In this document: piece after piece, positions 2 through 63,175 of the stretch
How the letters are laid out: each line of letters starts with the position of its first letter
Numbering within the stretch: position 1 is the first letter of the stretch
Assembly: GCA_001784175.1 (NCBI GenBank)
Contig: MFPR01000006.1
Span: 124,001 to 188,000, forward strand
DNA: 64,000 nt
Origin: Candidatus Lindowbacteria bacterium RIFCSPLOWO2_12_FULL_62_27
Lineage (GTDB): Bacteria; Lindowbacteria; 2-12-FULL-62-27
Direction: 5' to 3'
Notes under the pieces: generated by a model
The model's input: the letters and a program-made list of their open reading frames with translations, nothing else
What the model was told of the DNA's origin: nothing
The model's database searches: none
Position numbers and translations under genes: made by a program

Positions 2-3000
2 GGCGTGTCCGCGGCGAAGACCTACGTCGACGCAACGCCGAACGCGACGACTCAGCAGACGACCTATCAGGTGACGGGCCTCGTGAACGGCGACACCTAC
101 TGGTTCGTGGTGCGCGCCGAGGACGCGACGACCGGCAATGGCGGCCCGGGCGGCGGCAAGGAGGACACGAACCTGGTCGAGCGGCCGGCCCGGCCGACAG
201 GCGTGTCGTCGCCGGTGGTGAACGGAGCCGTGGCGACGTTCAATTATGTCGGCGGCGCCGTGGCGAAGGTCAAGGGGAGCTGGAAGGTGACGGGCGGGTC
301 GGCCGGCGTCTACACGGCGATCTACGACACGCAGTGGGACGGCGGGCTTGCGACGCCGATGGTGCTGAACGGCAGTGTATGGACGATCACGCTGACGCTG
401 GATCCGAACAAAACCTTCGAATACGGATTCGACATCGACGGCGCCTGGACGAACGATCCGCTGAACGCCAATCACGCCGCCAACGGCAACGACCAGCTCA
501 CGACCGCCCGGTCCGCCACCTCCGATTCGTCGGCGCCGGCGTTCGCGGGTCTTGCGAGCGCGACGGACGTCGCGTCGGGCGGGAAGGTCAATCTTTCGTG
601 GACGGCGGCGACGGACTCGACGCCGCCCATTACGTACAACATATATTTCACCAACGACACTGGCGCGCAGGTCTCGAAATCGTACGTGGACAATACGCCC
701 GACCTCACGACGGCCTCGACGAGCTATCAGGTCACGGGCCTCCGGAACGGCTGGACGTACTGGTTTACCGTGCGCGCTGAAGACGCGACGACGGGCAGTG
801 TGGGCCCGCACGGCGGCCTGCAGGACACCAACCTCGTCGAGCGGTCCGCGACGCCGTCCGGAAACACGGCGCCGGTCGCGAACGCGCAGTCGGTGAGCAC
901 GAACCAGAACACATCCAAAACGATCACGCTGACCGGTAGCGACGCCAACGGCGACCCGCTGACGTTCGCGATCGGTTCGGCCCCGGCGAACGGCGCTCTG
1001 GGCGCGGTAACGTCGGCGGGCGCGACGTCGGCGACCGTCGTCTACACGCCGAACGCCAACTTCAACGGCGCCGACAATTTCATCTTCACGGCAAGCGACG
1101 GCGTTCTGACGAGCGGCAGCGCGACCGTCTCGATCACCGTCAACGCCCCGCCGCAGGGCAAGCCCGCCATTTACATCGCGCACCACTGGCACATGCACCA
1201 GCCGATCTACTGGCCGGACGAAAACGTCGTCGCGACCGAGAACAACGGCCGGTACGGCTTCAGCGTCGTGTCCGTTCACAGCGACCGCACCGGCCCCTAC
1301 ACGACGTGGCCGGCGGACGCGGTCCAGAACGCGATGTGGAACGGCCTTGCGCACGGCGGCGCGTCGGTGAGTTTCACGGGGTCGCTGACCGAAAATCTGA
1401 ACACGCTGGAGGGTTCGGGCTGGGGATTCTACGGCTGGAAGAACCGCTGGCGCGAATCGCAGAACTGGACGACGTCTCTGGGCAACAAGCGTCTCGACAT
1501 CGTGATCTTCCCGTATTTCCACTCGATGCAGCCTCTGATTCCCGACAAGTGGGTGCGGTCGGGCATTCAGCGGTACAAGGGGATGTACGCGGGCACGTGG
1601 TCGACGGGGACGCTCTCCAAGGGCATGTTTCCCTCGGAAAATTCTCTGTCCCCGCACATGATCCCGGCCCTGGTCGACGAGGGCATCGAATGGGTGATGG
1701 TCGACAACGTCCATTTCGACCGCGCGACCCAGGGCTATCCGTGGAGTTCCAGCGGCAACCTCTACGAGCCGAATCCTTCCGACATCGTGAATCCGAATCC
1801 GAACGACTGGGTGCAGTTGACCAACATCTGGGCGCCGACGAAAATTTCCGGCCGGTGGGGACACCAGCCTCATTATGTGGAGTATGTGGACCCGACGACG
1901 GGCGTATCGAAGAAGATCATCGCGATTCCGACGGAACGCTACATGGGCAACGAGGACGGCCGCGGCGGTTACGGGGCTCTGCAGTACGAGTCGGTGATCT
2001 CGCAGCTTGAGCCTTACAACACCGACCCGTCGCATCCGGTCCTGGTGGTCCTGCATCACGACGGGGACAACTACGGCGGCGGGACGGAAGGGTACTACCA
2101 CGGCAACTACAGCGCGATGATCGACTGGTTGAAGGCCAACCCGAGCCGCTTCCAGCTCACGACCGTGCAGGATTATCTCTCGATGTTCCCGCCGGACCCG
2201 AGCGACATCATTCACATCGAGCCGGGGTCGTGGTCGGGCGCCGACAACGGCGATCCGGAATACAAGAAATGGAACGGCGACCCGGGCGCGGACGGATACA
2301 GCCCGGACCGCAACTCGTGGATGACGCTGATGGCGGCGCTCAACCGGATCGAAACCGCCGAGCAGATCAACGCGGGTCATCCGAACGTCGCGACCGCAAA
2401 GCGCCGGATCGAAGTCGGCATGACGTCCTGTTACTGGTACTGGGACGGCAGTCCGCCGTGGGACTACCATGTGACGCGCGCGTCGAACGAAGCCGTGTGG
2501 CTGGCCGATCAGGTGATCACAACGGGCCAGGACCGGACGCCGCCGTCGATTTATCTGCCGCAGCGCGATCCGTACAATCCCGCCGGCAAGGAGTGGGGCA
2601 TTCAGATGGGCAGCAACCTGAAAATATTCGGGCCCGTGTACGACGTCTCGGGGCTGCGCCGGGTCGAGCTGAAGTACCGGATCGACGACGACGGATTCAA
2701 TCCCGTGCCGGACCATGCCAACGAAGTGATCGCGGGCGGCGCCGGCGTCGGCGCGTGGCAGGTCTTGAGCATGACGGTCGATCCCTTCCCGGCCTCGCGG
2801 TCGAACCCGGCGCCCACGTATCGCGCGGACATTTACGCCGCGACGATCACGGGCCTCACGGACAAGCTGATCGACTACTATGTCGAGGCGGAGGATTTTC
2901 AGGGCAACGTGGCGAAATCGCCGATCCAGCACGTGAAATTCGGCGGCCTGGGCGGAGGCGGCACGGGCGGCGGTGGGCAGACGACGATTTTCATTCCGAG

Positions 3001-6000
3001 CAATCCGACGCAGAATGACACCATCCTGATCAGCGGCTCCAAGACCGGCAAGCTGCACTGGGCCGTCAACAACTGGACGCGGCCCGACACCGCCTACTGG
3101 CCGGCGGGCACGTTCGGTTACAACTCGCAGGCGGTCCAGACGCCGCTCGACGCGAATTTCAAGGTCGTGCTCGGTCCGTTCAATATCGCCGGCAAGACCG
3201 TGACGGAAATCAATTTTGTCTTCAACTGGAATGACGGCTCGTGGGACAACAACGGCGGGCTGAACTGGAAAATTCTCCTCAGCGTCGACGCCCAGGCCCC
3301 GGCCGCGCCGGCCGCGCCGGTCCTGACCGCGCGAAACGCCGCCGTCGATGTGTCGTGGCGCGCGAACGCCGAGGCGGACCTGGCCGGATACAAGCTCTAT
3401 CGCGCGAGCGGCGCCGCGTACGCGCTGATCGCGCAGCCGGCGAAAACGGCCGCGCTGTATCAGGACACCGGCGTGACGAACGGCACGACCTACACCTACG
3501 TATTGCAGGCGGTCGACAACGCGGGCAACGTCGGCGACAGCTCGCCGGCCGCGTCGGCCACGCCGCTGGCGACGGACACGGCCGCGCCTTCGGCGCCGGC
3601 GAGCCTCGCGATCCAGGCGCAGCAGTTGTCGAATCTGTTGACGTGGACCCGGAATCTGGAAACGGACCATCAGGATTACCTTCTGCTCCGCAGCAACTCG
3701 GCCGGCTCAGGATACTCGACGATCGCGACGCCCGACAGCACGGTGACGACGTACACGGACGGAAGCCTCACGGCCGGGGACACGAAATATTACATATTGA
3801 AAGCGCGCGACGTTACGGGCAACGCGAGCGACAGCTCGGCCGTCGTTTTCGCCGCCGCGCGCCCGGACCCGCCGCCCCAAGCGCCGACGGGCCTGACGGC
3901 ATGGCTCTGGGACCGGTCGATCCGGCTGACGTGGAACCGCAACGCGGAGTCGGACCTTGCGGGGTACAATCTTCTGCGTGCGACCGCCGCCGGCGGCCCA
4001 TACGCGCAGGTGAACGGCGCGCTGATCACAGACACTCAGTATACGGATTCGCCGCTGACGAACGGCACGGCCTATTATTACGTAGTCACATCCAAGGACA
4101 CCGCGAACGGCGAGTCGCCGAATTCCGCGGAGGCGACCGCGACACCAAAGCCGCTGATCGCCGTTCATTTCCGCGTGGACGTAACGGGCCAGATCGGCGT
4201 GAGCGTGGTGCGGATCGCCGGCGACCGGTTCACGCCGCCATGGAGCGCGGCCTCCAACGCGCTTCGGGACCTGGGCAGCGGCGTGTGGGGCGAGACCTTC
4301 CAGCTTCCGCTGGCGTCCCTTCAATATAAATATGTGGTCAACAGCGTGAGCTTCGAACCCGATTTCGCCACCGCATCCGGCAAGCGCGAACTCACGGTTG
4401 CGGACCAGTACGGGGACAGCCGGATGTTTGTGAGCAACCGCTGGGGCGTGTCGGGCGACGCGTATCCGGCCGCGCCGGCCGGCCTCACGGCGTCGTCCAA
4501 GACAGGGCGTGTGGACCTGCGCTGGAACCGCAACTCCACCGAATATGATGTGACAGGATTCAATGTCTACCGTTCGACCACGCCGGGCGCCGGCTACGTG
4601 AAAATCTCGTCCTTGTTGAACGACACCTCCTACGCCGACATCACCGTGACGAACGGCGATACGTACTATTACGTGATCCGTGCAGAAGACGCCGCCCGGC
4701 AGGAGGGGCCGGGTTCCAACGAAGTCCGCGCGACGCCGGGCCCAAACGTGCCGCCCGCGGTGCCTTCGGGCCTGAGCGCCGCCGCGGGCGACCGGCGCGT
4801 GACGCTGACGTGGACGGCGAACACGGAGCCGGACCTTGCGGGGTATCACGTTCTGCGGGGCGCGGCGTCCGGCGGCCCGTACACGCGGCAAAACGTCGAC
4901 ACGGTGCTGGTCGGCGCTTATGTGGACACCGGCGTCAACAACGGCGACACGTATTACTATGTCGTACAGGCCGTCGACCGCGAAGACTCACGCAGCGCGA
5001 ATTCCGCCGAAGTGTCGGCATCGCCCAAAGCGCCGGACACCACCGCGCCCGCCGCGCCCTCGGGCCTGACCGCCGTCGCGGGCGACCGGCGCGTGACACT
5101 GACCTGGACCGGCAGCGCGGAGTCCGACACGCTTGGATACAACGTCTACCGTTCGTCGTCCTCCGCGGGTGGCCCCTACGTCAAGCTGAACGGCGGGGTC
5201 GTCCTGTCGGCCGCGTATGCCGACGTATCGGTGACGAACGGCGTCAAATATTATTACATCGTCAAGGCCCTTGACCGCGTGTTGAACGAGAGCGATTCGT
5301 CCACGTCCGCGTCCGCGACGCCGATCGGCTCCACCGGCGGGATCGAGGAGCGGACGATCGACGGCGATTTTCTGGACTGGAAGCATTCCGACGTGCGTTT
5401 TCTGGATCCGGTGGCGGACAACAGCTACCTGTGGTGGGATGTCCTGTCTCCGAACCAGCAGGCGCTGGATCCGGCCCGGGACCTCATCGCGCTGTACAGC
5501 CGGGAGGGCCAGAACGATTATTACTTCCGCATCGATTTCCACGATCTCGCGTTCAATGTCGAGCAGACCGCGCTGGACTTTTACCTGGCGATCGATTTCG
5601 ACCCGACGCGCGGCCAGAGTTTCCTGCCGGATTTCGTGGACGCGACCACCGACCGGCCCTGGGAGCTGTGCATTGCCGTTTTCAACTCGACGGCCCAGGC
5701 CTTCTACAAGCCCGACTGGACGACGGTGACCTCGGTGGTGGTGAACGGCGTATCGGTCAATCCCATGCGCGGGATCAAGTATCACAGCCAGCAGGACGCC
5801 GTCGAGTTCGCGATCGCGAAGCAGGTCCTGATCAATCTCGGCTGGACGCCCGGCGCGCCGCTCAATCTCCAGGTGTTCAGCACGCGCGACGGTACCAACG
5901 GCGGTTTGGGCGAAGCGCCGCAACTGCCGGACATCACCGACGCCATTCCCGACAACGCGAGCATTCATGACGGTGTGATCAACGGCGCGGTCTCGACCGA

Positions 6001-9000
6001 CTCGACCGTCGGCCGCGCGAAATACTCGGTGATCCTGCACGGCAACCAGTCCCTGAACGAAGCGGGGAGCATCAACCGCTGGATCCGGGACGACGTCGCG
6101 GTGACGCCGAACAACAAGCCTTCGGGATATTTCCGCGCGTTGCAGAGCCACGAAGCCTACCGCGCGCCCGTCAACATCCACGTGTCCGGCTCGCTGGCCG
6201 CGGTGCTCGACATGGCGAACTCCAACAATCCCCTGAACGACGGCCCGACCTTCAACCAGCTCATCCGGCAGTTCGTGGACGACAACTGGAACGACAACCG
6301 GATGGGCCACATCATCGGCGGCGTCTACGCCGAGCACATCATGCCCTATTTCCGGGACGACGCGTCCATCGGCGTCTACGTGAACTCGACCGCGACCGAG
6401 TACAAGACAAAGGCCCTGACGAGCTACTACAGCCTGACGCGCCCGCCGCGCGTGTTCTGGATTCCCGAGCGCGTCATCGACGGCGCGACGCTCGGCAACA
6501 TCCTGACCGACGCGCGGACCGGCCAGCCGAGCGGCTACACCGCGACCGTGCTCGACCAGATCACGCATCTTCGGCTGTGGTTCGGCGAGAATCAGCCCCA
6601 CAAGATTCACAAGATCAACGGCGTTCTCTGTTTCATGATCAACGACATGCCCGACGACCGAAAGTTCTGGTCGCAGGACGGCGGCGCGAACTACCAGGTC
6701 CGCAAGCTTCTCCTCGACCTCGCGCGCGACACCGACCAGGAACAGCTCGTGCTGGTCTTCGACGACTGGGAGGCCTACGCCGGCCGGTCTTTCGCGTCGC
6801 AGACCGTCATCAACGAAAATCCGGACCAGTACGACAACACGATCCGGTGGATCGCCAACCACCCGTGGGTCGAAGTCGTGACGCTCGAGCAGGTCCTGGA
6901 CCGCAACTGGGGGCCGGTCGACCACGGCACGAACCTGAACCTTCCGAAATCGACGTACCAGTGGCTTCTGCATGCGACCGAGGGCAACTACGACAACTGG
7001 TATTTCGGCAGCAGCCAGGAGGCGTCGTTCCAGAACACCGTACCGGTACTGACCGGCAAGCAGTACGGCGTGAAAACGCCGATCGCGAGCGGCAAAAAAT
7101 ACGGATCGATCTGGGACGCCGGCACGATCCTCCGAGACGTGTGGGACGACATCAAGAATGCGCCGGCGAATGAGCTTAAGAAACTCGCCGAACTCGGCTA
7201 CACGCATCTCATCTACGAATCGGCCTGGCACGACGAGGACTACACCGAAAAGGCTTGGGACGCGAACTACAACTGGCTTGAGCCCGACCTCACCAGCGAC
7301 AATGTCGTCTTCTGGGCGCTCGATCTGCACGGGCACATCCGGCAGGTATCGGGGATCGTGGACGCCGCGAAGTGGGCGGAGGACGTGCGGACGGGCGCGC
7401 AGTCGGCGGGGACCGTCGTGCAGTCCAAGGACGTGGACCATGACGGGGAGAACGAATACATATTAAAGAACAACCGCGTCTACGCGCTCTTCGAAAACGA
7501 CGGTGGCCGGATGGTGATGGGATTCGCGTACGACGCCGCGCGCGGAGGCATTGAACTCATCGGCAACTCGATCGCCAACGCGGCCTTTGAGGGAGAAGAA
7601 GAGGACGTGGTCCGCCGGGTGTCGGCGCTCGCCGACATGAACGGCGGCGCGTATGTGAACGCGCTCTACAGCGTCACGACGGGCGCGGACACGATCGGTC
7701 TGGTTTCGCCGGACGGGCTCATCAAGAAAACGGTGCGGCTGCCTTCGGGCGCCGGCACGCTGGACGTGACCTACAACGAGTCGGTGACGGGCGCGTTGAA
7801 CGTTCGGATGGGCCTCGTGGGCAACCTTTACGACATGGTATTCACCGGCGAGCGCAAGATCCAGACGATCGGCAGCGCCGGCGGAAGTTTCTACGGCATC
7901 AAGAACACGAACGGCGGCCAGGTCTACGTGACCTTCAACCAGGCGACGCTCAACACCGGATTCACCGACGGTACGCCGGACAACACGAACTCGCCGTTCG
8001 TGCGGCAGATTGAATTGGCGGGCAACGGGACATTTTCGTTCAGCCTGACATTGAACACGAGCGACACCCTCTACATCCCGGACACCCCGGCCGCGCCGGC
8101 GGGCCTGGCGGCGGCGGCCTACAACGGCCGGGTGGCGCTGTCCTGGCAGGCGGTCCCGGACACGAACGTGGCGGGATATCACGTCTATAAGAGTGGAACT
8201 TCCGGCGGGCCTTACACGCAGTGCAACGCCGACACGGTGACGATCCCGGTCTATTCCGTGTACGGCCTGAACAACGGCGAGACGTATTACTTCGTCGTCC
8301 GCGCCGTCAGCCAGAAGGGCGTGCAGTCGCCGAACTCCAACGAGGTGCGGGCGGTCCCGGTCACTTCGATCAGCGTGACGTTCACGATCGACCTGCGAAG
8401 CCTCCCGACCTACGGGCTCGCGCAGATGGCGGGCAACGCGCTGAGTCCCGCCTGGACGCCGGGCCCGTTCACGATGCCGGCCAACGGCGGCGGGACATTC
8501 TCGATCACGCTCCCGCTGACCGTCGGGACCGTTCTGCAGTACAAATACGTACACGACACGACCGCGTGGGAGAGCGATTTTACGACAACGTCAAAAAACC
8601 GCGAGCTCACCGTCGCCGACCAGGGCGGCGGCAAGATGACCGTCAACAACAAATGGAACGTCATCGGCGATCCGCCGCCCGCCGTGCCGAACTCGGCGTC
8701 GCTGGAAGTCGGCTCGGACACGATCCGGATCAAGTGGGTCCACAGCGCCGATTTCGACGTCGTCGGATACAACGTCTACCGGTCGCAGACGACGGGCGGG
8801 CCGTACGTCCGCATCGCGTCGGCCGGCCGGATCGAAAGCCACCTCGATTCGGGCCTGACGAGCGGGACGCGCTACTATTACATCGTCCGGTCGCTGGACC
8901 AGATGGGCCAGGAGTCGGTCAGCACGCCGGAGCTGAACGGCCTGCCGGGCACGAACCCGCCGCCGGCGCAGGTCAGCGGCGTAGCGGCGACCGCCGGCGT

Positions 9001-15000: not shown

Positions 15001-18000
15001 CGCCGGCCTGACCAGCGCCTACAGCTACACGTTTGCCGGCGGCGACCGGTATTACTGGCGGGTGCAGGAGATGGACGATTTCGAGACATCTCCCTGGAGC
15101 GACGCGCGCGACCTGACCGTCGACTTTTTCATCCCCGCCGTGACGCTCACCGCGCCCGCGAACGGACTGGAGACGTCGGCGAGTTTCGTCAAATTCGCCT
15201 GGAGCCAGCCGGCGGACGACGTCAGCGGATTTGATCTGTTCACGCTCGAAGTCAGCACGACGCCGGCCTTCACCGCGGTCGCCCACACGGTGCAGACCAT
15301 CGATCCGAACTCGTGGCTTCTCGTGACCAACGGGGACACCTCGTATTCCTGGCGCGTTCGCGCGCGCGACCGCGCGGGCAATGAGGCCGTGAGCAGCGTG
15401 CGGACGCTGCGGATCGACACGGGCGTGCGGGTGAGCCTGGCGGCGCCGGACAGCGGCGTGCGAACGGCTGACACGACGCCGTCGTTCAGTTGGTCGAGCC
15501 CGGACGCGGACACGTACCGGTTCGAGCTCTCCGTTGCGCCGACGTTTTCGCCGCTGGTCGACAACGCGCTGGTGACTTCCACCGCTTACACACCGTCGGC
15601 CCTGATCTATCCGAACAACACCTACTTCTGGCGCGCCGTGGCGCTGGACCGCGCCGGCAACCAGACCGCCGCGCCGGCCCGCGTGATCCACATCGACACG
15701 CAGGTTGCCGTCACGCTTGTTGCGCCGCCCGACCTCGTGGACACAAGCGCCGTGCGCCCGCCGTTCGCGTGGACCGGCGACGCCGACACGTACAATTTCC
15801 AGATCTCGAGGCAGACCACGTTCGCGACGCTGGTGGACAGCACGACCACGACCGGCCTCGCGTACACGCCGGGCGCGAATTATCCGGCGGACACGTTTTA
15901 CTGGCGCGTGATCGCGACCGATTTCGTCGGCAACGCCGCGACCTCGGCCTCCCGCACGATCGTGATCGACACCGGCGTCCGCGCGGACCTCTTCGGCCCG
16001 GCGGACCGCGTCGAGACGAACGACACGACGCCCGCGTTCAGTTGGACCGGCAGCGGCGAAACCTACACCTTCGAGATTTCGACCAGCGTCGGCTTTGCGG
16101 CCGTCCTGGACAGCGTCACGACCACGAGTCTCGCGTATACGCCGGCCCCGGGATACGCGGCGAACAGTTACTTCTGGCGCCTCACGGCGCGCAATTCGGT
16201 CGGCGGCGTGAAGATCACGCCCGCGTGGTCCATCGTCATCGACACCAAGGCGCAGGCGTCGCCCGCGTCGCCGGCCGATCTCTTCCGGACCAACGCGTTG
16301 CGGCCGGCGCTGAGCTGGACCGGTGACGGCAGGCAGTTCACCGTGCAGGTCTCGAAATCGGCGGGCTTCAGCCCCCTCGTGGACAACGTGACGGCGGCGG
16401 CCTTCGCGTACACGCCGACCGCCGATCATGCGGCCGACACGTATTTCTGGCGCGTCATCGCCGAGGACACGGCGGGCAATTTCGACACGAGCGCCGCCCG
16501 GACGCTGGTGATCGACACGTCGGTGGTCGTCGCGCTGGCCGGCCCCACCGAAGCCGAACGGACGAACCTCCGATCGCCGGCCTTCACGTGGACGGGCGAT
16601 GGCGACACATACGAGTACCAGATTTCGAAATCGAGCGCGTTTGGAATCGTGATCGACAGCCAGCTTCTGGCGGGGACGGCCCACACGCCGTCGACCGCCT
16701 ATGTCGCCGACACCTATTTCTGGCGCGTCCTGGTCTGGGACCGCGCCGGCAATTCCGCCGCGGCGGCATGGCGCGCGCTCGTCATCGACACGTTCGTGTC
16801 GGTATCGCTCACATCGCCCTATGATCTTTATCCCACCAACCATCTGCGGCCGGCTTTTGCGTGGTCTTCCGACGGAGAAACATTTGTCATCCAGATTTCG
16901 CGCGGGAGTTCCTTTACGACCCTCCATGACAGCCTGACGACGGCGGCGTTCGCGTACACGGCCTCCGCCGATTATCCGGCGGACACCTATTACTGGCGCG
17001 TCGTCGCGCGCGACCCGGCCGGCAACACCGAGACAACAGCGGCGCGCCGGGTTCTCGTGGACACCTTCGTGCAGGCGACGCTGGCGGGTCCTGCGGACGG
17101 CCATGAAACGAACGTGACGGCGCCGGCGTTCTCATGGACCGGAAACGGCGACACCTACACGATTCAGATTTCGAAGACCTCCGCGTTCACGACCCTGTCG
17201 GACGCCGCGACGACGGGCGGCCTGGCCCACACGCCGGCCTCCGGCTACGGCGCGGACACCTACTGGTGGCGCGTGATATCGCGCGATGCCGCCGGCAACT
17301 GGGACACCACGGCCTCGCGGCGGGTCGTGATCGACACGGGCGCCAGGGTCGTCCTGCTCGGCCCGGAACAGATGTTCCAAACGAGCGACACGCGTCCGAC
17401 ATTCACGTGGTCCGGCGACGCCGACACCTACACCGTCCAGGTGTCGCGCGCAAGTTCATTCTCGACGATCTACGACCAGAACGACACGACCGGCGGCAGC
17501 TACGAGCCGGCGCAGGTGTCCGCGTATCCGGCCGACACGTACTACTGGCGCGTGACGGGCGTGGACCGGCTGGGCAATCAGGAAACCAGCGCCGTGCGGA
17601 TGCTGTTTGTGGATACCGGCCTTGTCGTCAACGCGAACCTCCCGCCGGATCCGAACGAAACCAACGATACGACGCCGACGTTCACATGGAGCGGAAGCGG
17701 CGACACCTACACGTGGCAGATCAGTCTTTCGGCAGCGTTCGCGCCCGTCGCCGACAGCCTGACGACCGGCGGCGGGACGTACACGCCGTCTCCCGGCTAC
17801 AGGGCCGACACCTATTACTGGCGCGTGGCCGCGCGCGACAATGCCGGCAACTGGGACACCACGCCGGCCCGGAAACTCGTCATCGACACGGCCGCGCCGT
17901 CGGTCCCGACGGTGACGTCTCCCGCCGACCAGGCCGTGACGAACAAGCCGGCGCCGACCTTCGCCTGGTCCGGCGACGCGGACAGCTATGTTTTTGAGTT

Positions 18001-21000
18001 GTCAAAATCATCCGCCTTCGCGGCGCTCGTTTCCGCCGAAACGACGCTGACGTCCTCGTCGACGGTGTCGTCGCTCGCGCAGGACACGTATTATTACCGT
18101 GTCCGCGGGTATGACCGCGCCGGAAACGCCGGCGCCTTCTCGGCCGCCCGCACGCTTTATATCGACACGCAGATATCCGTCTCCCCCGCCGCGCCTGCGG
18201 ATCTTCACGAAACAAGCAACCCGCAGCCGGCTCTGACCTGGACCGGCGAGGCCGACACGTATGTGGCGCAGATCTCGACCTCCTCCGGATTCGGAACGAC
18301 GGTCGAAAGCGCGCTCACGACATCAAGCCAGTTTACCCCGTCTTCGGTCCTTGCGGCGAACACCTATTACTGGCGCATCCTGGCCCTGGACCGCGCGGGG
18401 AACGCGGACACCTCGCCGTCGCGCCGGTTTGTCATCGACACCGGCGTCCGCGTGTCGCTGGTGGCCCCTGCGGGATTCACCCGAACGAACGACACCACGC
18501 CCGCTTTCGCCTGGACAGGCGATGCCGACACCTACAAGCTCGAAGTGTCGCGTCTCAACGATTTCTCCATCCTGTTTGACAGTCTGACCACGACGGGCAC
18601 CACGTATGCCTCGACCCGAATTTATCCGCACGACACATTTTACTGGCGCGTCTCGGCCATCGACCGTTCGGGCAACAACGGCATCACGGGCCTGCGGGTT
18701 CTCCACATTGACACCATCGTTTCCGTGGCGCTTTTGACGCCGGCCGACACGTCCCGGACAAGCGCAGTGCGGCCCGTGTTCGCCTGGTCGGGCGACGCGG
18801 ACTCCTACAGGCTCCAGATTTCCACGTCCCCGGCATTCGGGACCACGGTGGACGACTCCATTGTGTTCACGACGAGTTTCGCGCCGGCCTTCAACTATCC
18901 GGCCGACACCTACTACTGGCGCGTGACCGGATCGGATCTTGCCGGCAACCAGATCACGGCGGCCTCGCGCCTGCTGGTGATCGACACGCATGTGTCGGTA
19001 ACGCTTGCGTCGCCGGCCAACGCGTTTGTGACCAACAACCCGCGGCCGGCGTTCTCCTGGACGGGCGACGCCGATACGTACACCGTCCAGGTTTCCTCCG
19101 ATGTCAATTTCGGCACGCTGGCGCATCAGAACACGGTATCGTCCACCACCCATACGCCGGCCGCCGGACTGCCCCCGGACACTTACTTCTGGCGCGTCGT
19201 CGCGCGGGACGTGGCCGGAAACATTCTCACGACCGCCGCGAGAGGGTTTGTCATCGACACGCTCGTCACGGTCCAGCTCTTGTCTCCGTCCCATCTGGCC
19301 AAGACGGGCGAGACGCAGCCCACGTACACATGGACGGGAACGGGAGACACCTACACCCTTCAGGCGTCGACCTCGTCGACCTTCGCAACGATCTTTGACA
19401 GCCGGACAACGACGTCCGTGACCTTCGCCGCGACCGCGACCTACGCGCCGGACACCTATTACTGGCGGCTGATCGCGATGGACCGTGCCGGCAACGTCGA
19501 GACCTCGGCCGCGCGGACGCTGACGGTGGTGTCGGGTGTCGTCGTCAACCTCCTGAGCCCGGAAGACACGACGTACACGAACAGCTTGCGGCCCGTCTTC
19601 GCATGGAACGGGAGCGGCGAGACGTTCACCTTTGAGATTTCCCGCACGTCGGCGTTCTCGACTTTGCTGGACGCCCGTTCGTCCGCCGGATCGACCCACG
19701 CGCCCGCGATCGACTACCCGGCCGACACGTACGTGTGGCGCGTGATCGTCCGGGACGGGCTGGGCAGAGTGGACACGTCCCCCGCGCGCCGCCTGGTGAT
19801 CGACACGGGCGTGTCGGTCAGCCTGGGCGATCCGGGCGCCGGTCATTCCACCAAGGCCACGTCTCCCGCGTTCGCGTGGTCCGGCGACGCGGAAACCTAC
19901 GTTTTCCAGATTTCGAAATCCGCGGCCTTCGTCCCGCTGGTCGACAGCCGCACCACCGCATTGACGGCCTATACGCCGGCCTCCGTCTACACCGCCGATA
20001 CTTATTTCTGGCGCGTGATCGCTTCCGACCGCGCCGGCAACGTCGAGACATCGGCCGCGCGGTCCCTGGCGGTCGACACGTCCGTCACGGTCGCGCTGTC
20101 CTTCCCGCCGGACCTGCAGCGCACCAGCAGCCGCCGGCCGGCGTTCACGTGGTCGGGCGACGCGGAGACCTACACGATCCAGGTCTCGACCTCGGGCGCC
20201 TTCGCGACGATCGCGGACGCGCAGGCCACGAACCTCACCGCCTACACGCCGGCCGCCGATTATGCGTACGACACTCATTTCTGGCGCGTCGTGGCGACCG
20301 ACCGCGCAGGCAATGTGGAAACGAGCGCGGCGCGGACGCTCGTGATCGACTCCGGCGCCGCCGTGGTCGTCACGCCGCTCGGCCCGGCGGATTTCCGGCA
20401 GACCAACGAGACGATGCCGGCCTTCACGTGGGCGGGCGACGCCGACACGTACGTGGTCGAGGTCGCGGCGAACGATCCGGCATTCGGAGCGATCTACGAT
20501 TCGAAGACGCTGACCGCGACGAGCTTCACGGCCTCGCGCGGATTTGTGTATGGCATTTATTTCTGGCGCGTCACCGGCTCGAAGACGCTGGGCGGCCGGA
20601 CCGTTTCGGCCGTACGAACGCTGTACATCGACACGGCCGTCCGGGTCATCCCGAGTTTTCCGCCTAATGATTCCGACCTGCAAACCCCGCGGCCGATGAT
20701 GGTGTGGAGCGGCGACGGCGAAACCTATCACGTCCAGGTCGCGCGCAACTACGAGTTCACGGCCCTGCATGACAGCCGGGTCCTCCGTGTCACGGCCTAC
20801 GCGCCGCCGTTCCCGTATCCGGCCGGCGCCTATTTCTGGCGCGTGATCGCCCGGGACATTGCGGGGAACGTCGAAACGAGCGCCACCCGCCGCTTCAATG
20901 TGACGCTGTCCTTCGACACGGTCACCGCGCGCGGCTTCCGGTTCATGCCGACCCTGCCGATCGACACGCGTCCCATCGTGGTTCTGCGGGGCCGCGTCAA

Positions 21001-22063
21001 CGAAACGGAGCCGGTGGTCGCGCTCACGGTCACGCAAAACGGCGACACCGTCTACACCGTGGGCATTGCGAGCGATAGCGCCGCCTTCAATATCGGCGTG
21101 GCGGTCGCGACGGTCCTCGGCCCGAACATTTTTGTGGCGCGCCTGACCGACTCGTACGGCCGCGCCTTTTATGACACCGTGCGGATCAACCGCCTGACGG
21201 GCGAGGTTTCGGCGATGTCGTTGCCGAGCGGCATGACCACACAGCTTCCGCAAAGCACGCGCTCCGAGACCTGGGTGGGCGTGCTGTCGTTTGCGGACAC
21301 CGCCGCGCCAGCGCGCGTGGCCGTTCCGCTCTACGACCCTGTCCGCGGCGCCTATACGAATTCATGGAACATCAACATTCAGCCGAAGGATTCCGGCACG
21401 AACCTGACCGTGCGCCGCGCCCCGGACACGGTGGCGCTCCGGCTGACGGCCGGCGCCTCGCTCGGATCCAGCTTCCAGTTCACCGCCTTCGAGTTCACGC
21501 TGTACGACGCCGCCGGAAGCAGCATCGGCGCCAGCGAGGGCAGTTTCCAGACGCTGTCGCTGTCGATCGATCCGACCGGCATGGATCTGGGCACGAGCCT
21601 CCTGACGGACCTGCGGCTCTTCACGTTCAACGAAGCGACGCTCGCCTGGGACCAGGTGGCGGGCAGCGGATACAATCCGGTGACCGGCCAGGTCGAAGGC
21701 AACCTGCAGCACTTGTCGTTCTACGCCGTCCTGCCGGCGGTGGCCGTGGCCGGCGACCTCAACAACGTCGTCGTCTATCCGAATCCCTTCAAACCCAATT
21801 CCGGCAACGCGCGCGCCGGCCGCGAATACGACGGCACGGTCGGGTCCGGCATCACCTTCTCGAACCTCACCGCCTTCGCGCGCATCACGATCTTCTCGCT
21901 CGACGGCGTCAAGGTCGACGAGTTCGAAGTCGCCGGCACGGGCCGGGTCCAGTGGGACGCCAAGAATTCCCAGGGCCGCCCGGTCGCCAGCGGCGTGTAT
22001 CTGTACCTCATCGAATCCGGCTCGGGAGAGAAATTTGCCGGGAAGGTCGCGGTGGTCCGGTAA
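2..22063 (+). CDS. Giant secreted multidomain GH57-like amylase/pullulanase-type protein with FN3, starch-binding-like and Ig-like repeats; 5' end outside window
   Basis: Uninterrupted ORF of at least 7352 codons; motifs HWHMHQPIYWP (twice), FP[SP]E[NS], HDGDN; FN3 signatures (LxWxxNxExDLAGYxVYRS); C-terminal FlgD/T9SS-like domain ending in ...GKVAVVR. Confidence 0.9.
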   Translation, partial: GVSAAKTYVDATPNATTQQTTYQVTGLVNGDTYWFVVRAEDATTGNGGPGGGKEDTNLVERPARPTGVSSPVVNGAVATFNYVGGAVAKVKGSWKVTGGSAGVYTAIYDTQWDGGLATPMVLNGSVWTITLTLDPNKTFEYGFDIDGAWTNDPLNANHAANGNDQLTTARSATSDSSAPAFAGLASATDVASGGKVNLSWTAATDSTPPITYNIYFTNDTGAQVSKSYVDNTPDLTTASTSYQVTGLRNGWTYWFTVRAEDATTGSVGPHGGLQDTNLVERSATPSGNTAPVANAQSVSTNQNTSKTITLTGSDANGDPLTFAIGSAPANGALGAVTSAGATSATVVYTPNANFNGADNFIFTASDGVLTSGSATVSITVNAPPQGKPAIYIAHHWHMHQPIYWPDENVVATENNGRYGFSVVSVHSDRTGPYTTWPADAVQNAMWNGLAHGGASVSFTGSLTENLNTLEGSGWGFYGWKNRWRESQNWTTSLGNKRLDIVIFPYFHSMQPLIPDKWVRSGIQRYKGMYAGTWSTGTLSKGMFPSENSLSPHMIPALVDEGIEWVMVDNVHFDRATQGYPWSSSGNLYEPNPSDIVNPNPNDWVQLTNIWAPTKISGRWGHQPHYVEYVDPTTGVSKKIIAIPTERYMGNEDGRGGYGALQYESVISQLEPYNTDPSHPVLVVLHHDGDNYGGGTEGYYHGNYSAMIDWLKANPSRFQLTTVQDYLSMFPPDPSDIIHIEPGSWSGADNGDPEYKKWNGDPGADGYSPDRNSWMTLMAALNRIETAEQINAGHPNVATAKRRIEVGMTSCYWYWDGSPPWDYHVTRASNEAVWLADQVITTGQDRTPPSIYLPQRDPYNPAGKEWGIQMGSNLKIFGPVYDVSGLRRVELKYRIDDDGFNPVPDHANEVIAGGAGVGAWQVLSMTVDPFPASRSNPAPTYRADIYAATITGLTDKLIDYYVEAEDFQGNVAKSPIQHVKFGGLGGGGTGGGGQTTIFIPSNPTQNDTILISGSKTGKLHWAVNNWTRPDTAYWPAGTFGYNSQAVQTPLDANFKVVLGPFNIAGKTVTEINFVFNWNDGSWDNNGGLNWKILLSVDAQAPAAPAAPVLTARNAAVDVSWRANAEADLAGYKLYRASGAAYALIAQPAKTAALYQDTGVTNGTTYTYVLQAVDNAGNVGDSSPAASATPLATDTAAPSAPASLAIQAQQLSNLLTWTRNLETDHQDYLLLRSNSAGSGYSTIATPDSTVTTYTDGSLTAGDTKYYILKARDVTGNASDSSAVVFAAARPDPPPQAPTGLTAWLWDRSIRLTWNRNAESDLAGYNLLRATAAGGPYAQVNGALITDTQYTDSPLTNGTAYYYVVTSKDTANGESPNSAEATATPKPLIAVHFRVDVTGQIGVSVVRIAGDRFTPPWSAASNALRDLGSGVWGETFQLPLASLQYKYVVNSVSFEPDFATASGKRELTVADQYGDSRMFVSNRWGVSGDAYPAAPAGLTASSKTGRVDLRWNRNSTEYDVTGFNVYRSTTPGAGYVKISSLLNDTSYADITVTNGDTYYYVIRAEDAARQEGPGSNEVRATPGPNVPPAVPSGLSAAAGDRRVTLTWTANTEPDLAGYHVLRGAASGGPYTRQNVDTVLVGAYVDTGVNNGDTYYYVVQAVDREDSRSANSAEVSASPKAPDTTAPAAPSGLTAVAGDRRVTLTWTGSAESDTLGYNVYRSSSSAGGPYVKLNGGVVLSAAYADVSVTNGVKYYYIVKALDRVLNESDSSTSASATPIGSTGGIEERTIDGDFLDWKHSDVRFLDPVADNSYLWWDVLSPNQQALDPARDLIALYSREGQNDYYFRIDFHDLAFNVEQTALDFYLAIDFDPTRGQSFLPDFVDATTDRPWELCIAVFNSTAQAFYKPDWTTVTSVVVNGVSVNPMRGIKYHSQQDAVEFAIAKQVLINLGWTPGAPLNLQVFSTRDGTNGGLGEAPQLPDITDAIPDNASIHDGVINGAVSTDSTVGRAKYSVILHGNQSLNEAGSINRWIRDDVAVTPNNKPSGYFRALQSHEAYRAPVNIHVSGSLAAVLDMANSNNPLNDGPTFNQLIRQFVDDNWNDNRMGHIIGGVYAEHIMPYFRDDASIGVYVNSTATEYKTKALTSYYSLTRPPRVFWIPERVIDGATLGNILTDARTGQPSGYTATVLDQITHLRLWFGENQPHKIHKINGVLCFMINDMPDDRKFWSQDGGANYQVRKLLLDLARDTDQEQLVLVFDDWEAYAGRSFASQTVINENPDQYDNTIRWIANHPWVEVVTLEQVLDRNWGPVDHGTNLNLPKSTYQWLLHATEGNYDNWYFGSSQEASFQNTVPVLTGKQYGVKTPIASGKKYGSIWDAGTILRDVWDDIKNAPANELKKLAELGYTHLIYESAWHDEDYTEKAWDANYNWLEPDLTSDNVVFWALDLHGHIRQVSGIVDAAKWAEDVRTGAQSAGTVVQSKDVDHDGENEYILKNNRVYALFENDGGRMVMGFAYDAARGGIELIGNSIANAAFEGEEEDVVRRVSALADMNGGAYVNALYSVTTGADTIGLVSPDGLIKKTVRLPSGAGTLDVTYNESVTGALNVRMGLVGNLYDMVFTGERKIQTIGSAGGSFYGIKNTNGGQVYVTFNQATLNTGFTDGTPDNTNSPFVRQIELAGNGTFSFSLTLNTSDTLYIPDTPAAPAGLAAAAYNGRVALSWQAVPDTNVAGYHVYKSGTSGGPYTQCNADTVTIPVYSVYGLNNGETYYFVVRAVSQKGVQSPNSNEVRAVPVTSISVTFTIDLRSLPTYGLAQMAGNALSPAWTPGPFTMPANGGGTFSITLPLTVGTVLQYKYVHDTTAWESDFTTTSKNRELTVADQGGGKMTVNNKWNVIGDPPPAVPNSASLEVGSDTIRIKWVHSADFDVVGYNVYRSQTTGGPYVRIASAGRIESHLDSGLTSGTRYYYIVRSLDQMGQESVSTPELNGLPGTNPPPAQVSGVAATAGVNQITVTWNANTEADLAGYNIYFTVTLNGVPQKLNSALITGTSYLHQNLSSSFSYTYWVCAVDNSGSEGLWSASVQQTPTPAGGSVPIYIAYHWHMHQPIYWPYENIVTTYSTRSNYSYVRDVLGWPDRVDAYTHNPIDNISRFSYLPNWGAQISYSGSLIENIDNMSAVGHSYYGGWSNRYAEGHGWSTSLGNRRTDLVAFGYHHPMMPFIHYRDLRLQVQMHRRKLTNRFGNPYSKGMFPPESAFSERMIPALLDEGIEWVMVDNLHLDHANKNFPWSISEKVNPPNRAEQVNNPQANYLSLSCQTNTSYKVSAPFSVTPHYTKYVDPATGTERKIIVVPLERTLGYDDSYGDRTPQQRLEAFLPYNTDPNHPMLVVLAHDGDNAGASGFRYYVETMGWLGGADPNKFRFTTVQDYLSMFPPDPNDVVHVTDGSWVGADLGDQELKKWMGDPYKNGVVDFTNGFSSDWNSWMVITAGKNRMMHAESIQPPSGDIGAIMDGTGNNTDKGWREFLVGEASCYWYWDGTVQWDEQPTRAVNAAMNFADAVIGAGTPPGSTPDNVGPTVFPLLREPYNPGAEEAFKGLQPSDFDVFTFIYDASGLTSVTLKYRIDADGENPLSDNANEVYGAGAGVGPWLTAAMSIKAFPNPPAAQLQPLYRASIYTARVSGLTNSLLDYYVEAVDGRGNVTKSDIHHVYVGQTVTSSVGSGVWQPSAPTSSDTILITATKAGYLHWGVNGWLKPDSSYWPSATAPYDNFSVETRLDANFHAVIGPFNKSQSVPRIDFVFRHDDGTWGKNNGADYRIDLIVDTIAPAAPTGLTATPDNQRVVLVWSAPVEADLTGYQVYRAADTAGPYALLVTTGRIATHTDTSVTNGVVYYYRLRAVDASGNASDTSAMVSATPSGVDLTPPARPTGVTLTSQEFAIRVAWTANREYDLSGYRVYRSTSAGSGYALAQTAGAAATSYTDGGMGLTDTYYYVITAFDSAGNVSDTTAAIGARALAAQPPARPANVSAAPGDSKVTVSWFANTEADLAGYNVYRSLSATNGFVKDNGSVLVLTIYNVNNLPNDSTYYFVVTAVDTGGNESDSSTVVSATPHGGIQVSFRMNASAAGALSAVQIAGDKFSPAWTPSATTLTNEGAGIWRVTKQFLVNERLQYKYIKDTTGWEGNFPANESVNREVTVVDHGGGRMFVSNAWNVDGDLLPAAPTGLAATAGNATAQLTWNANTEYDLAGYDIYRSTVSGSGFTKIAARVAGAAYPCTGLTNGTTYYFKVSAEDSALQEGPTSAQVSALPFVPDTTAPAAPSGVDAAVTGGTIRVTWARNAEADLSGYRVYRNTAAAGQFTALGGLISDTKYTDAASAGVTYYYVVRAQDSAGNLSDTSASDTALISGNAVAVDGHAGEWVGTAPTSDNTIAISGGEWIWKDAVGDQRSDAADPDSNYDLKEVRFTGDVAGMSMLVRMDNITDNTFPYLTLGVDRDPAATGGEQWFGQYIEATMNNAAWRDYEVILNGTKTGHFGVGAGGWTWKDTGASFISTANDVIEANFKWYSIGVTLPKKLRITMASARNNAGNPDEVFGADILDAVTTASGNTWSDVGDGQLDYYFDIGFNADGKVNTAPTAPAWAGPADGSTLSSDIVNFAWTWNDGDGQIAVTPMYELQVARDTVFATLVFTDSSTGFVTTRGHDFGGNGDYYARVRTRDDFDWSPWSAALKITISITNLPDGDPANWLGVASTASNTHTVSAGEWIWTDATLDERTDAADPDANYDLKELRLAGDSAHLYVLARFRDITSAALPYLSIALDKDRVSGSGERAFGGSSETQMDTRAFRDYELVMNNNKAGFYGAGAGGFTWSEKGNVTLSTANDAMEGRYHWSDLGVALPATVRFTAMTASNSGGNTAEIYQSDAVDAVTTINGNTWGDAQDGVINSSFDISFTRDGRVNAPPGKPVLISPAASATANTSAVTFVWSCRDPDSTSTASPRYRVQIANDSAFAQLVVDYVRAGLTSAYSYTFAGGDRYYWRVQEMDDFETSPWSDARDLTVDFFIPAVTLTAPANGLETSASFVKFAWSQPADDVSGFDLFTLEVSTTPAFTAVAHTVQTIDPNSWLLVTNGDTSYSWRVRARDRAGNEAVSSVRTLRIDTGVRVSLAAPDSGVRTADTTPSFSWSSPDADTYRFELSVAPTFSPLVDNALVTSTAYTPSALIYPNNTYFWRAVALDRAGNQTAAPARVIHIDTQVAVTLVAPPDLVDTSAVRPPFAWTGDADTYNFQISRQTTFATLVDSTTTTGLAYTPGANYPADTFYWRVIATDFVGNAATSASRTIVIDTGVRADLFGPADRVETNDTTPAFSWTGSGETYTFEISTSVGFAAVLDSVTTTSLAYTPAPGYAANSYFWRLTARNSVGGVKITPAWSIVIDTKAQASPASPADLFRTNALRPALSWTGDGRQFTVQVSKSAGFSPLVDNVTAAAFAYTPTADHAADTYFWRVIAEDTAGNFDTSAARTLVIDTSVVVALAGPTEAERTNLRSPAFTWTGDGDTYEYQISKSSAFGIVIDSQLLAGTAHTPSTAYVADTYFWRVLVWDRAGNSAAAAWRALVIDTFVSVSLTSPYDLYPTNHLRPAFAWSSDGETFVIQISRGSSFTTLHDSLTTAAFAYTASADYPADTYYWRVVARDPAGNTETTAARRVLVDTFVQATLAGPADGHETNVTAPAFSWTGNGDTYTIQISKTSAFTTLSDAATTGGLAHTPASGYGADTYWWRVISRDAAGNWDTTASRRVVIDTGARVVLLGPEQMFQTSDTRPTFTWSGDADTYTVQVSRASSFSTIYDQNDTTGGSYEPAQVSAYPADTYYWRVTGVDRLGNQETSAVRMLFVDTGLVVNANLPPDPNETNDTTPTFTWSGSGDTYTWQISLSAAFAPVADSLTTGGGTYTPSPGYRADTYYWRVAARDNAGNWDTTPARKLVIDTAAPSVPTVTSPADQAVTNKPAPTFAWSGDADSYVFELSKSSAFAALVSAETTLTSSSTVSSLAQDTYYYRVRGYDRAGNAGAFSAARTLYIDTQISVSPAAPADLHETSNPQPALTWTGEADTYVAQISTSSGFGTTVESALTTSSQFTPSSVLAANTYYWRILALDRAGNADTSPSRRFVIDTGVRVSLVAPAGFTRTNDTTPAFAWTGDADTYKLEVSRLNDFSILFDSLTTTGTTYASTRIYPHDTFYWRVSAIDRSGNNGITGLRVLHIDTIVSVALLTPADTSRTSAVRPVFAWSGDADSYRLQISTSPAFGTTVDDSIVFTTSFAPAFNYPADTYYWRVTGSDLAGNQITAASRLLVIDTHVSVTLASPANAFVTNNPRPAFSWTGDADTYTVQVSSDVNFGTLAHQNTVSSTTHTPAAGLPPDTYFWRVVARDVAGNILTTAARGFVIDTLVTVQLLSPSHLAKTGETQPTYTWTGTGDTYTLQASTSSTFATIFDSRTTTSVTFAATATYAPDTYYWRLIAMDRAGNVETSAARTLTVVSGVVVNLLSPEDTTYTNSLRPVFAWNGSGETFTFEISRTSAFSTLLDARSSAGSTHAPAIDYPADTYVWRVIVRDGLGRVDTSPARRLVIDTGVSVSLGDPGAGHSTKATSPAFAWSGDAETYVFQISKSAAFVPLVDSRTTALTAYTPASVYTADTYFWRVIASDRAGNVETSAARSLAVDTSVTVALSFPPDLQRTSSRRPAFTWSGDAETYTIQVSTSGAFATIADAQATNLTAYTPAADYAYDTHFWRVVATDRAGNVETSAARTLVIDSGAAVVVTPLGPADFRQTNETMPAFTWAGDADTYVVEVAANDPAFGAIYDSKTLTATSFTASRGFVYGIYFWRVTGSKTLGGRTVSAVRTLYIDTAVRVIPSFPPNDSDLQTPRPMMVWSGDGETYHVQVARNYEFTALHDSRVLRVTAYAPPFPYPAGAYFWRVIARDIAGNVETSATRRFNVTLSFDTVTARGFRFMPTLPIDTRPIVVLRGRVNETEPVVALTVTQNGDTVYTVGIASDSAAFNIGVAVATVLGPNIFVARLTDSYGRAFYDTVRINRLTGEVSAMSLPSGMTTQLPQSTRSETWVGVLSFADTAAPARVAVPLYDPVRGAYTNSWNINIQPKDSGTNLTVRRAPDTVALRLTAGASLGSSFQFTAFEFTLYDAAGSSIGASEGSFQTLSLSIDPTGMDLGTSLLTDLRLFTFNEATLAWDQVAGSGYNPVTGQVEGNLQHLSFYAVLPAVAVAGDLNNVVVYPNPFKPNSGNARAGREYDGTVGSGITFSNLTAFARITIFSLDGVKVDEFEVAGTGRVQWDAKNSQGRPVASGVYLYLIESGSGEKFAGKVAVVR
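185..500 (+). other. CBM48/AMPK-glycogen-binding-like module in ORF-A
   Basis: Translated GAVATFNYVGGAVAKVKGSWKVTGG...YGFDIDGAWTNDPLN resembles glycogen-binding early-set modules. Confidence 0.4.
1165..2530 (+). other. GH57-like catalytic module A
   Basis: YIAHHWHMHQPIYWP ... KGMFPSENSLSPHMIPALVDEGIEWVMVDN ... LVVLHHDGDNYGG. Confidence 0.75.
2978..3285 (+). other. CBM25/26-like starch-binding module, copy 1
   Basis: NPTQNDTILISGSKTGKLHWAVNNWTRPDTAYWPAGT...VFNWNDGSWDNNGG; duplicated at 11118. Confidence 0.55.
4158..4470 (+). other. CBM20-like starch-binding module, copy 1
   Basis: IAVHFRVDVTGQIG...LQYKYVVNSVSFEPDFATASGKRELTVADQ; three related copies in ORF-A. Confidence 0.55.
5980..7080 (+). 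other. Divergent GH57-like module B
   Basis: YSVILHGNQSLNE ... VNIHVSGSL ... RVFWIPERVIDG ... LVLVFDDWEAYAG matches the order of GH57 motifs. Confidence 0.5.
8367..8670 (+). other. CBM20-like starch-binding module, copy 2
   Basis: ISVTFTIDLRSLPTYGLAQMAGNALSPAWTPG...LQYKYVHDTTAWESDFTTTSKNRELTVADQ. Confidence 0.5.
9255..10660 (+). other. GH57-like catalytic module C
   Basis: YIAYHWHMHQPIYWP ... KGMFPPESAFSERMIPALLDEGIEWVMVDN ... LVVLAHDGDNAG. Confidence 0.75.
11118..11425 (+). other. CBM25/26-like starch-binding module, copy 2
   Basis: WQPSAPTSSDTILITATKAGYLHWGVNGWLKPDSSYWPSAT. Confidence 0.55.
12297..12603 (+). other. CBM20-like starch-binding module, copy 3
   Basis: IQVSFRMNASAAGALSAVQIAGDKFSPAWTPS...LQYKYIKDTTGWEGNFPANESVNREVTVVDH. 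Confidence 0.5.
15140..20915 (+). repeat. About 21 tandem Ig-like repeats of about 93 aa (~279 nt) in ORF-A
   Basis: Repeated V.V.L..P.D...T....P.F.W.GDADTY..Q.S....F......T....YTP...Y.ADTYYWRV.A.DRAGN..TS..R.LVIDT. Confidence 0.9.
21765..22063 (+). other. FlgD Ig-like / T9SS type A-like C-terminal domain of ORF-A
   Basis: VVVYPNPFKPN...ARITIFSLDGVKVDEFE...VQWDAKNSQGRPVASGVYLYLIESGSGEKFAGKVAVVR. Confidence 0.75.
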
Positions 22064-29938: not shown

Positions 29939-30030
29939 CCTCTCGACCATCCGTGTGTAAAGGATACACACACTTCACGTCCCTCAAACGCCTACAATTT
30001 ACCGAAATCCCGGCCTTCTGTCAAGAGTAG

Positions 30031-30101
30031 CTGGCCCGCCCGGATTCGAACCGGGATCTCACGTTTGAGGGACGTCTGTGTTTCCCTTACACCACGGGCC
30101 A
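30031..30101 (-). tRNA. tRNA-like gene, anticodon read as CTC (Glu), atypical C33
   Basis: Minus strand cloverleaf: TGGCCCG/CGGGCCA acceptor, GTGT/ACAC D stem, ACGT/ACGT anticodon stem with CCCTCAA loop, CCCGG-TTCGAAT-CCGGG T arm. Confidence 0.65.
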
Positions 30102-57174: not shown

Positions 57175-57534
57175 GGGGGCGAACTGGTTTCGACGTGCTT
57201 CTTGTGGGTACGGTGGGCGCGCCGGGTCCTGTCGGGACGACCCGTTAAAAACCTTCCGACACACTCCATAAACGCCAACGATAATCTGGCGCTGGCGGCC
57301 TAACTAGGCCCCGGAGCGGGGGAAGGCGGTTTGGGCCTTCAGCGCCTCCCCGCTCCACGGAACTGAAGGTCTCCTGATCCGACAGCCTTCGGTCGGAATC
57401 TTGTACCTTGAAGGCTGGGCCTGGCCGGGGCTGCCTGCGGTCAACCGGTAGGCCGAGACACAATCGCGGGATACGCGCGTAGAACATCGTGTCCGGGATT
57501 CACGGACGGGGGTTCGATTCCCCCCGCCTCCACC
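57175..57534 (+). ncRNA. ssrA: tmRNA
   Basis: 5' GGGGGCGAACTGGTTTCGACG; 3' GGGGGTTCGATTCCCCCCGCCTCCACC; tag ORF GCC AAC GAT AAT CTG GCG CTG GCG GCC TAA (ANDNLALAA) at 57274-57303. Confidence 0.95.
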
Positions 57535-57572
57535 TTAATACTTGTTTCGTCGCTCCAAGGAGGGTTTGTGGT

Positions 57573-59922: not shown

Positions 59923-59938
59923 GGCCGTGTCGCTGAGC

Positions 59939-61122: not shown

Positions 61123-61128
61123 GCACCG

Positions 61129-63148: not shown

Positions 63149-63175
63149 AAACGAAAGCGAGGTCTGCACCGAAGC

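What the first reader, a model, noticed from the sequence alone, without database searches (positions are those of the whole stretch)
2..22063. Megaprotein (at least 7352 aa) with three GH57-like modules and several starch-binding-like modules
GH57-like modules near 1165, 5980 and 9255 keep the HMHQP/HxNQ, glutamate (FPSEN, FPPES, WIPER) and aspartate (HDGDN, FDDWE) motif regions. They are combined with CBM20-, CBM25- and CBM48-like modules, FN3 spacers and about 21 Ig-like repeats. This looks like a single-chain, cell-surface glucan-degrading complex rather than a cellulosome-like assembly of subunits.
Basis: partly seen in the sequence, partly recalled or inferred. Interest (0 to 1): 0.6.

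Follow-up and report, generated by a model that had tools for sequence, protein, structure and literature searches.

The report
Giant single-chain surface starch-degrading enzyme
A bacterium from a barely sampled phylum appears to build one enormous surface protein (8,166 amino acids) that carries four starch-cutting units and many starch-binding units on one chain, with its own outer-membrane docking partner encoded by the next gene; other bacteria make similar units as separate or much smaller proteins.

Summary
Inside the window are three GH57 modules. A and C match Pfam GH57; A aligns to the catalytic Glu and Asp of T. litoralis 4-alpha-glucanotransferase (TlGT), and C keeps both. B has no Pfam match of its own, but its family profile and confident predicted structure both find TlGT first, with Glu2969 and Asp3068 placed as expected. 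The A and C blocks are an intragenic duplication (43% over 1,331 aa). Starch-binding modules are weak matches individually, but Sumerlaeota proteins with the same A+B core carry clear CBM25/CBM53 modules. The "~21 Ig repeats" are 20 of ~91 aa plus one. The C-terminus resembles a type IX secretion (T9SS) sorting domain, nearest PorZ's, and a PorV/PorQ-family barrel gene starts in the stop codon. Thirteen of 15 such barrel genes inspected follow a tailed gene, mostly overlapping it; no PorU sortase was detected. Best reading: a surface-anchored, one-chain alpha-glucan-degrading machine with a dedicated docking barrel. Activity and export are untested.

The parts
2..22063 (+). In-window part of the giant ORF. 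The full gene is G000:C6:121563-146063 (8,166 aa) and starts 2,438 bases before window base 1. Outside the window lie the signal peptide (aa 1-33, by eye), the GH13 alpha-amylase domain (aa ~55-540; D277, E311, D395; C6:121725-123182), a Big_5 domain and the first CBM48-like unit
   Evidence: GH13: PF00128 E=7.3e-42, best PDB match 4e2o alpha-amylase E=1.1e-34 with the triad aligned
200..526 (+). CBM48/CBM20-like domain, second of a pair (the first lies upstream of the window)
   Evidence: sub-threshold CBM48/AMPK-beta/CBM20 matches for the first copy; the copies are 58% identical; AMPK-beta glycogen-binding domain among weak PDB hits
1172..2542 (+). GH57 module A; nucleophile E1359 (1637-1639), acid/base D1500 (2060-2062)
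   Evidence: PF03065 4.3e-12; aligned to TlGT E123/D214; invariant in five sequences
2984..3292 (+). CBM25-like starch-binding module 1
   Evidence: PF23166 (glucan water dikinase N-terminal domain) 6.3e-10; weak alpha-amylase G-6 binding-module hit, 2c3v
4145..4462 (+). CBM20-like module 1
   Evidence: profile of the three copies hits glucoamylase starch-binding domain 1ac0, E=0.005
5330..5995 (+). Unnamed beta-rich domain preceding B, also present in relatives
   Evidence: aligned in the G014 relative, query 11-908 of 921
5996..8092 (+). GH57 module B with TlGT-like C-terminal beta domain; E2969 (6467-6469), D3068 (6764-6766)
   Evidence: family profile hits TlGT 7.8e-06 with E aligned to E123; 26 of 49 family members match PF03065; AF2 pLDDT 91.8; Foldseek 1k1x E=1.3e-21
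8354..8674 (+). CBM20-like module 2
9248..10678 (+). GH57 module C (47% identical to A); E4056 (9728-9730), D4195 (10145-10147)
   Evidence: PF03065 1.4e-16
11135..11437 (+). CBM25-like module 2 (51% identical to module 1)
   Evidence: PF23166 6.9e-10
12290..12607 (+). CBM20-like module 3
   Evidence: CBM_20 E=0.0024, below cut-off
13169..14810 (+). Two similar beta-rich domains of unassigned family, with an Ig/FN3-like spacer
   Evidence: seen in the translation; no Pfam match to the domains themselves
15128..20884 (+). Ig-like stalk: one domain plus 20 repeats of about 91 aa
   Evidence: Big_13 E=2.9e-83, 13 stretches; 273-nt spacing
21758..22060 (+). C-terminal T9SS type A-like / PorZ-like sorting domain
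   Evidence: NF052228 PorZ 3.3e-12, matching the last 93 positions of the PorZ model; TIGR04183 19.9 bits, cut-off 23
22063..22992 (+). PorV/PorQ-family outer-membrane barrel gene, ATG overlapping the giant gene's stop (TAATG)
   Evidence: NF033709 174 bits, cut-off 90; PorQ model scores above PorV model; PF19572; sequence
23081..25594 (+). Neighbouring GH57+DUF3536 protein, probably intracellular
   Evidence: PF12055 2.7e-116, PF03065 8.5e-17

Best explanation
A single 878-kDa, surface-displayed alpha-glucan (starch/glycogen) degrading machine. Sec exports it by its signal peptide; an outer-membrane translocon distantly related to SprA passes it across; its uncleaved PorZ-like C-terminal domain is then held by the PorV/PorQ-family barrel encoded by the next, overlapping gene. 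The Ig repeats form a stalk that lifts the catalytic part off the cell. There, one GH13 amylase and three GH57 domains, interleaved with starch-binding modules on FN3 linkers, cut the same bound polymer. An overlapping upstream LacI-family gene probably regulates it. Shown: domain content, catalytic residues, gene order and overlap. Inferred: activity, substrate, export route, anchoring, stalk role, regulation.
For: GH13 with complete triad; GH57 A/C by Pfam and catalytic residues of TlGT; GH57 B by profile, family Pfam matches and fold. Starch-binding signals inside the protein and clear CBM25/CBM53 in Sumerlaeota relatives with the A+B core. T9SS-like tail, overlapping PorV/PorQ-family gene, divergent SprA-like gene, no PorU catalytic domain found. 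Genome-wide tail-barrel pairing: 13 of 15 barrel loci inspected follow a tailed ORF, 11 with overlapping stop/start; 8 pairs in which both members are called by HMM, against 0.02 expected by chance; also seen in both sister genomes. Cognate CTD-barrel handling is shown or proposed for SprB-SprF, PorP-PG1035 and PorZ-PorQ (PMC9143113, PMC12618676, PMC10202324). LacI upstream.
Against: No catalytic or localisation data. CBM20/48 matches are below curated cut-offs. The SprA hit covers only positions 350-706 of 2,319 and is below cut-off. GldM was not found, but that search had no working control. The tail itself is below the type A cut-off. GH57 includes transferases, branching enzymes and alpha-galactosidase, so specificity is open. 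Modules A and B are not found in the two sister genomes, though these are only 81-88% complete.
Confidence: 0.62

Rival explanations
1. It is exported and active on alpha-glucans, but proteases cut it into separate enzymes after secretion: a polyprotein rather than one working machine.
For: FN3/Ig linkers and four separable catalytic domains; relatives carry A and B as separate ~1,000-aa proteins.
Against: No repeated cleavage motif was noticed between modules (not searched systematically); only one C-terminal anchor exists, which release would waste.
Confidence: 0.15
2. It is mainly an alpha-glucan-binding or remodelling surface protein (glucanotransferase, branching or own-glycogen turnover) rather than a degrader.
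For: TlGT is the nearest structure for B; GH57 holds transferases and branching enzymes.
Against: N-terminal GH13 resembles alpha-amylases; CBM25/53-rich relatives; LacI-family regulator.
Confidence: 0.12
3. The long ORF is partly an assembly or decay product and is not made as one protein.
For: Fragmented assembly of 44 contigs; repeats present.
Against: No stop in 8,166 codons, strong codon-position signal, repeats too divergent to be collapsed or looped (60-83%), intact overlap with the next gene.
Confidence: 0.03
4. Export does not use a type IX-like route; the tail is a generic FlgD-like domain and the barrel a general transporter.
For: Weak tail score; core T9SS parts mostly undetected; FlgD_ig and FadL/TodX matches.
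Against: Strong PorV/PorQ-family score, SprA-like gene, and repeated pairing with overlapping genes.
Confidence: 0.2

Closest known systems
Sumerlaeota A+B GH57 proteins (L034 2,062-aa, L083 2,341-aa, L161 3,160-aa frames; L160 4,040-aa frame)
   Same: Fuse an A-type and a B-type GH57 with starch-binding modules on one chain
   Different: At most half the size; one A and one B; no GH13 found in the two scanned with Pfam (the 4,040-aa frame read in its first 3,462 aa)
GH57 enzymes, nearest Thermococcus litoralis 4-alpha-glucanotransferase (1k1w/1k1x) and Staphylothermus marinus amylopullulanase (7e1y)
   Same: Fold of B, catalytic Glu/Asp of A and C, nucleophile Glu of B
   Different: Single catalytic module; low sequence identity (10-13% in the structural alignment of B)
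Ruminococcus bromii amylosome
   Same: Many starch-active units and binding modules gathered at the cell surface (PMC9112005, abstract)
   Different: A complex of separate proteins; here a single polypeptide, with no dockerin/cohesin seen in the parts scanned
T9SS cargo-barrel pairs: PorZ-PorQ, SprB-SprF, PorP-PG1035
   Same: C-terminal domain held by a cognate FadL-type barrel; sprB and sprF adjacent (PMC9143113, PMC12618676, PMC10202324)
   Different: In F. johnsoniae all type A tails use one PorV and only type B tails have own PorP/SprF barrels; here type A/PorZ-like tails often have their own PorV/PorQ-family gene

Membership tests
GH57 (modules A and C) | Family profile match | tested here: met
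   PF03065 46.4 and 61.1 bits, cut-off 21.2
GH57 (modules A and C) | Catalytic Glu (beta4) and Asp (beta7) | tested here: met
   A: E1359 and D1500 align with TlGT E123/D214 (weak pairwise alignment); C: same columns in alignment
GH57 (modules A and C) | (beta/alpha)7 barrel fold | tested here: inconclusive
   AF2 model of A with four sequences failed, pLDDT 36.8
GH57 (module B) | Family profile match | tested here: met
   Not by itself; family profile hits TlGT E=7.8e-06 and 26/49 relatives match PF03065
GH57 (module B) | (beta/alpha)7 barrel and catalytic pair | tested here: met
   pLDDT 91.8, Foldseek TlGT E=1.3e-21; E2969 aligned to E123, D3068 at the end of the seventh strand and invariant in 49; no residue-level superposition for D3068
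GH119 (sister family of GH57) | Own sequence signature | not testable with these tools
   No GH119 profile appeared in the libraries searched; A and C could be nearer to it
GH13 alpha-amylase | Profile match and D/E/D triad | tested here: met
   PF00128 7.3e-42; D277, E311, D395 align with 4e2o
CBM20 / CBM25 / CBM48 | Curated profile score | tested here: not met
   Best CBM_20 18.1 bits (cut-off 23.3), CBM_48 14.2 (22.4); CBM25-like units pass only PF23166. Described as like, not as members
T9SS type A cargo | C-terminal sorting domain over cut-off | tested here: not met
   TIGR04183 19.9 bits, cut-off 23; PorZ model 45.7 bits over its C-terminus
PorV/PorQ family (partner gene) | NF033709 over cut-off | tested here: met
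   174 bits, cut-off 90
Complete T9SS | SprA/Sov translocon | tested here: inconclusive
   69.9 bits, partial, cut-off 200
Complete T9SS | PorU sortase | tested here: inconclusive
   PF01364 no hit, but no control genome rang; NF033707 matches only the tail region, never the catalytic part
Cellulosome/amylosome | Dockerin-cohesin assembly | tested here: not met
   None in Pfam scans of most of the protein; a few FN3 stretches not scanned

The most novel reading that the evidence does not exclude
This phylum uses a sortase-free, type IX-like display system in which many cargos, giants included, each have their own PorV/PorQ-type barrel as outer-membrane dock; the 878-kDa amylase is a one-chain counterpart of an amylosome displayed that way.
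Probability: 0.35. Interest if true: 0.72.

Novelty: new variant of a known kind. Interest (0 to 1): 0.55.

Why it matters
It would be a natural one-gene alternative to the amylosome, with two unrelated amylase families (GH13 and GH57) joined in fixed order and stoichiometry. The barrel pairing bears on an open T9SS question raised in PMC10202324: how some C-terminal domains escape cleavage, with cognate PorV-like barrels as the proposed answer. This genome offers 13 candidate pairs to test. B-type GH57 modules (no Pfam match here, widespread across phyla) become a testable enzyme group.

Tried and rejected
Direct profile comparison of the B and A families with few sequences found nothing; a 49-sequence B alignment gave only a weak match to A but a significant one to TlGT. 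Structure prediction of module A with four sequences failed (pLDDT 36.8) and was not used. Foldseek against viral proteins gave nothing of use. GldM and C25 searches rang in no control genome, so their negatives are weak. The relative named Thermococcus (L061) was not used as an archaeal example because a small contig may be contamination. Papers: no report of GH13+GH57 on one chain or of per-cargo PorV was found in the held library, which is incomplete. A mis-framed coordinate for the barrel gene was corrected. The assembly-artefact idea was rejected on repeat divergence and codon signal.

Full report
Setting. The window is C6:124001-188000 of a 4.39-Mb, 44-contig genome. Only two other genomes of its phylum are held, both in the same family. 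I could not name the organism: the one scan of named genomes returned relatives of module B but not this genome.

Gene. The frame 2-22063 is the 3' nine-tenths of a gene that starts upstream at C6:121563. The ATG overlaps the stop of a LacI-family gene (ATGA) and is followed by a typical signal peptide, judged by eye. The product is 8,166 aa, 878 kDa. Codon-position GC of 0.571/0.509/0.873 shows coding throughout.

Catalytic domains. (i) GH13: aa ~55-540, PF00128 7.3e-42; nearest PDB chains are alpha-amylases and cyclodextrin glucanotransferases; D277, E311, D395 match the triad. (ii) GH57 A and C: over Pfam's cut-off. In A the Glu of FPSEN and the Asp of HHDGDN align with E123 and D214 of TlGT; both are invariant in A, C and three relatives. 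(iii) GH57 B: no Pfam hit alone. A 49-member family from many phyla keeps P-E-R and the second D of DDWE invariant. Its profile hits TlGT at 7.8e-06 with PERV on TERV, 26 of 49 members hit PF03065, and a confident AF2 model (pLDDT 91.8) finds TlGT first in the PDB. In the model E2969 follows the fourth barrel strand and D3068 ends the seventh, as GH57 requires (PMC6037648). Foldseek gave no residue-level superposition, so the D3068 equivalence rests on strand order and conservation.

Other modules. CBM25-like pair: PF23166, the N-terminal domain of glucan water dikinase, at 6e-10 and 7e-10. CBM20-like triplet: profile hits the glucoamylase starch-binding domain at 0.005. CBM48-like pair: sub-threshold. 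Sumerlaeota proteins with the same A+B core carry CBM25 and CBM53 at up to 5e-33, the best support for an alpha-glucan substrate. Blocks A (aa 1195-2589) and C (aa 3894-5202) align colinearly at 43% over 1,331 aa: an internal duplication. The stalk is 20 repeats of ~91 aa plus one domain, 60-83% alike in DNA.

Export and anchoring. The C-terminus matches PorZ's C-terminal domain (3.3e-12) and, below cut-off, the T9SS type A tail. The next gene, 22063-22992, starts inside the stop codon (TAATG) and is a PorV/PorQ-family barrel, nearer PorQ (115.6 bits) than PorV (82.4). The genome has at least 29 tailed ORFs, 8 with frames over 4,000 aa, and about 18 PorV-family genes. Of 15 barrel loci inspected, 13 follow an ORF ending in such a tail, 11 with overlapping start and stop. 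Eight pairs do not depend on my reading of the tails (both members called by HMM), against 0.02 expected. The sister genomes show it too. Many tailed ORFs have no barrel beside them, the second giant in this window included, so a shared barrel must serve those, or another route. A divergent SprA-like gene exists. PorU was not found: the sortase model matches only its tail region. In F. johnsoniae type A tails share one PorV, while type B tails have cognate PorP/SprF barrels (PMC12618676); PMC10202324 suggests that cognate PorV-like barrels protect tails from cleavage. The arrangement here resembles that second mode with PorZ/PorQ-like parts.

Comparison. A- and B-type modules usually occur as separate ~1,000-aa proteins. 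Sumerlaeota fuse one of each (2,062 to at most 4,040 aa). No GH13 was found in the two of these scanned, although the 4,040-aa frame was read only in its first 3,462 aa. The present protein adds GH13, a second A block, a long stalk and the barrel partner.

Verdict. Parts are known kinds; the combination, and above all the per-cargo barrel pairing, is a new variant. Enzyme activity, substrate, export and anchoring are inferred.

Noticed in passing
window 29747-57043: Second giant ORF, up to 9,098 aa: Kelch, FG-GAP, many beta-helix/NosD blocks, FN3, and a T9SS-type tail over cut-off. No PorV-type gene was seen directly after it; a tmRNA follows.
   Followed up: partly
window 30030-30101: A predicted tRNA-Glu on the minus strand lies inside the first part of the second giant ORF, so that ORF's true start is probably downstream of 30101.
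   Followed up: no
G000:C2:54861-55280 and G000:C40:24895-25299: T9SS-tail-like matches lie in open frames of 22,286 and 10,454 aa: even larger giants in this genome.
   Followed up: no
G000, 13 loci: L009, L109-L117, L120, L122, L123: Genome-wide pairing of PorV/PorQ-family genes with the tailed gene just upstream, mostly with overlapping stop/start codons.
   Followed up: yes
window 23081-25594: GH57+DUF3536 protein directly after the barrel gene, probably intracellular; further GH57 genes on C41 and C4.
   Followed up: partly
L051-L057: Verrucomicrobial proteins of about 2,700-2,850 aa carry a B-type module that lacks the DDWE motif and, in most, HGNQ: possibly altered or inactive relatives.
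   Followed up: no
window 57489-63634: Ordinary conserved block: amidase, germane-domain protein, LptC-like, ABC ATPase, sigma-54, ribosome hibernation factor, PTS EIIA.
   Followed up: no
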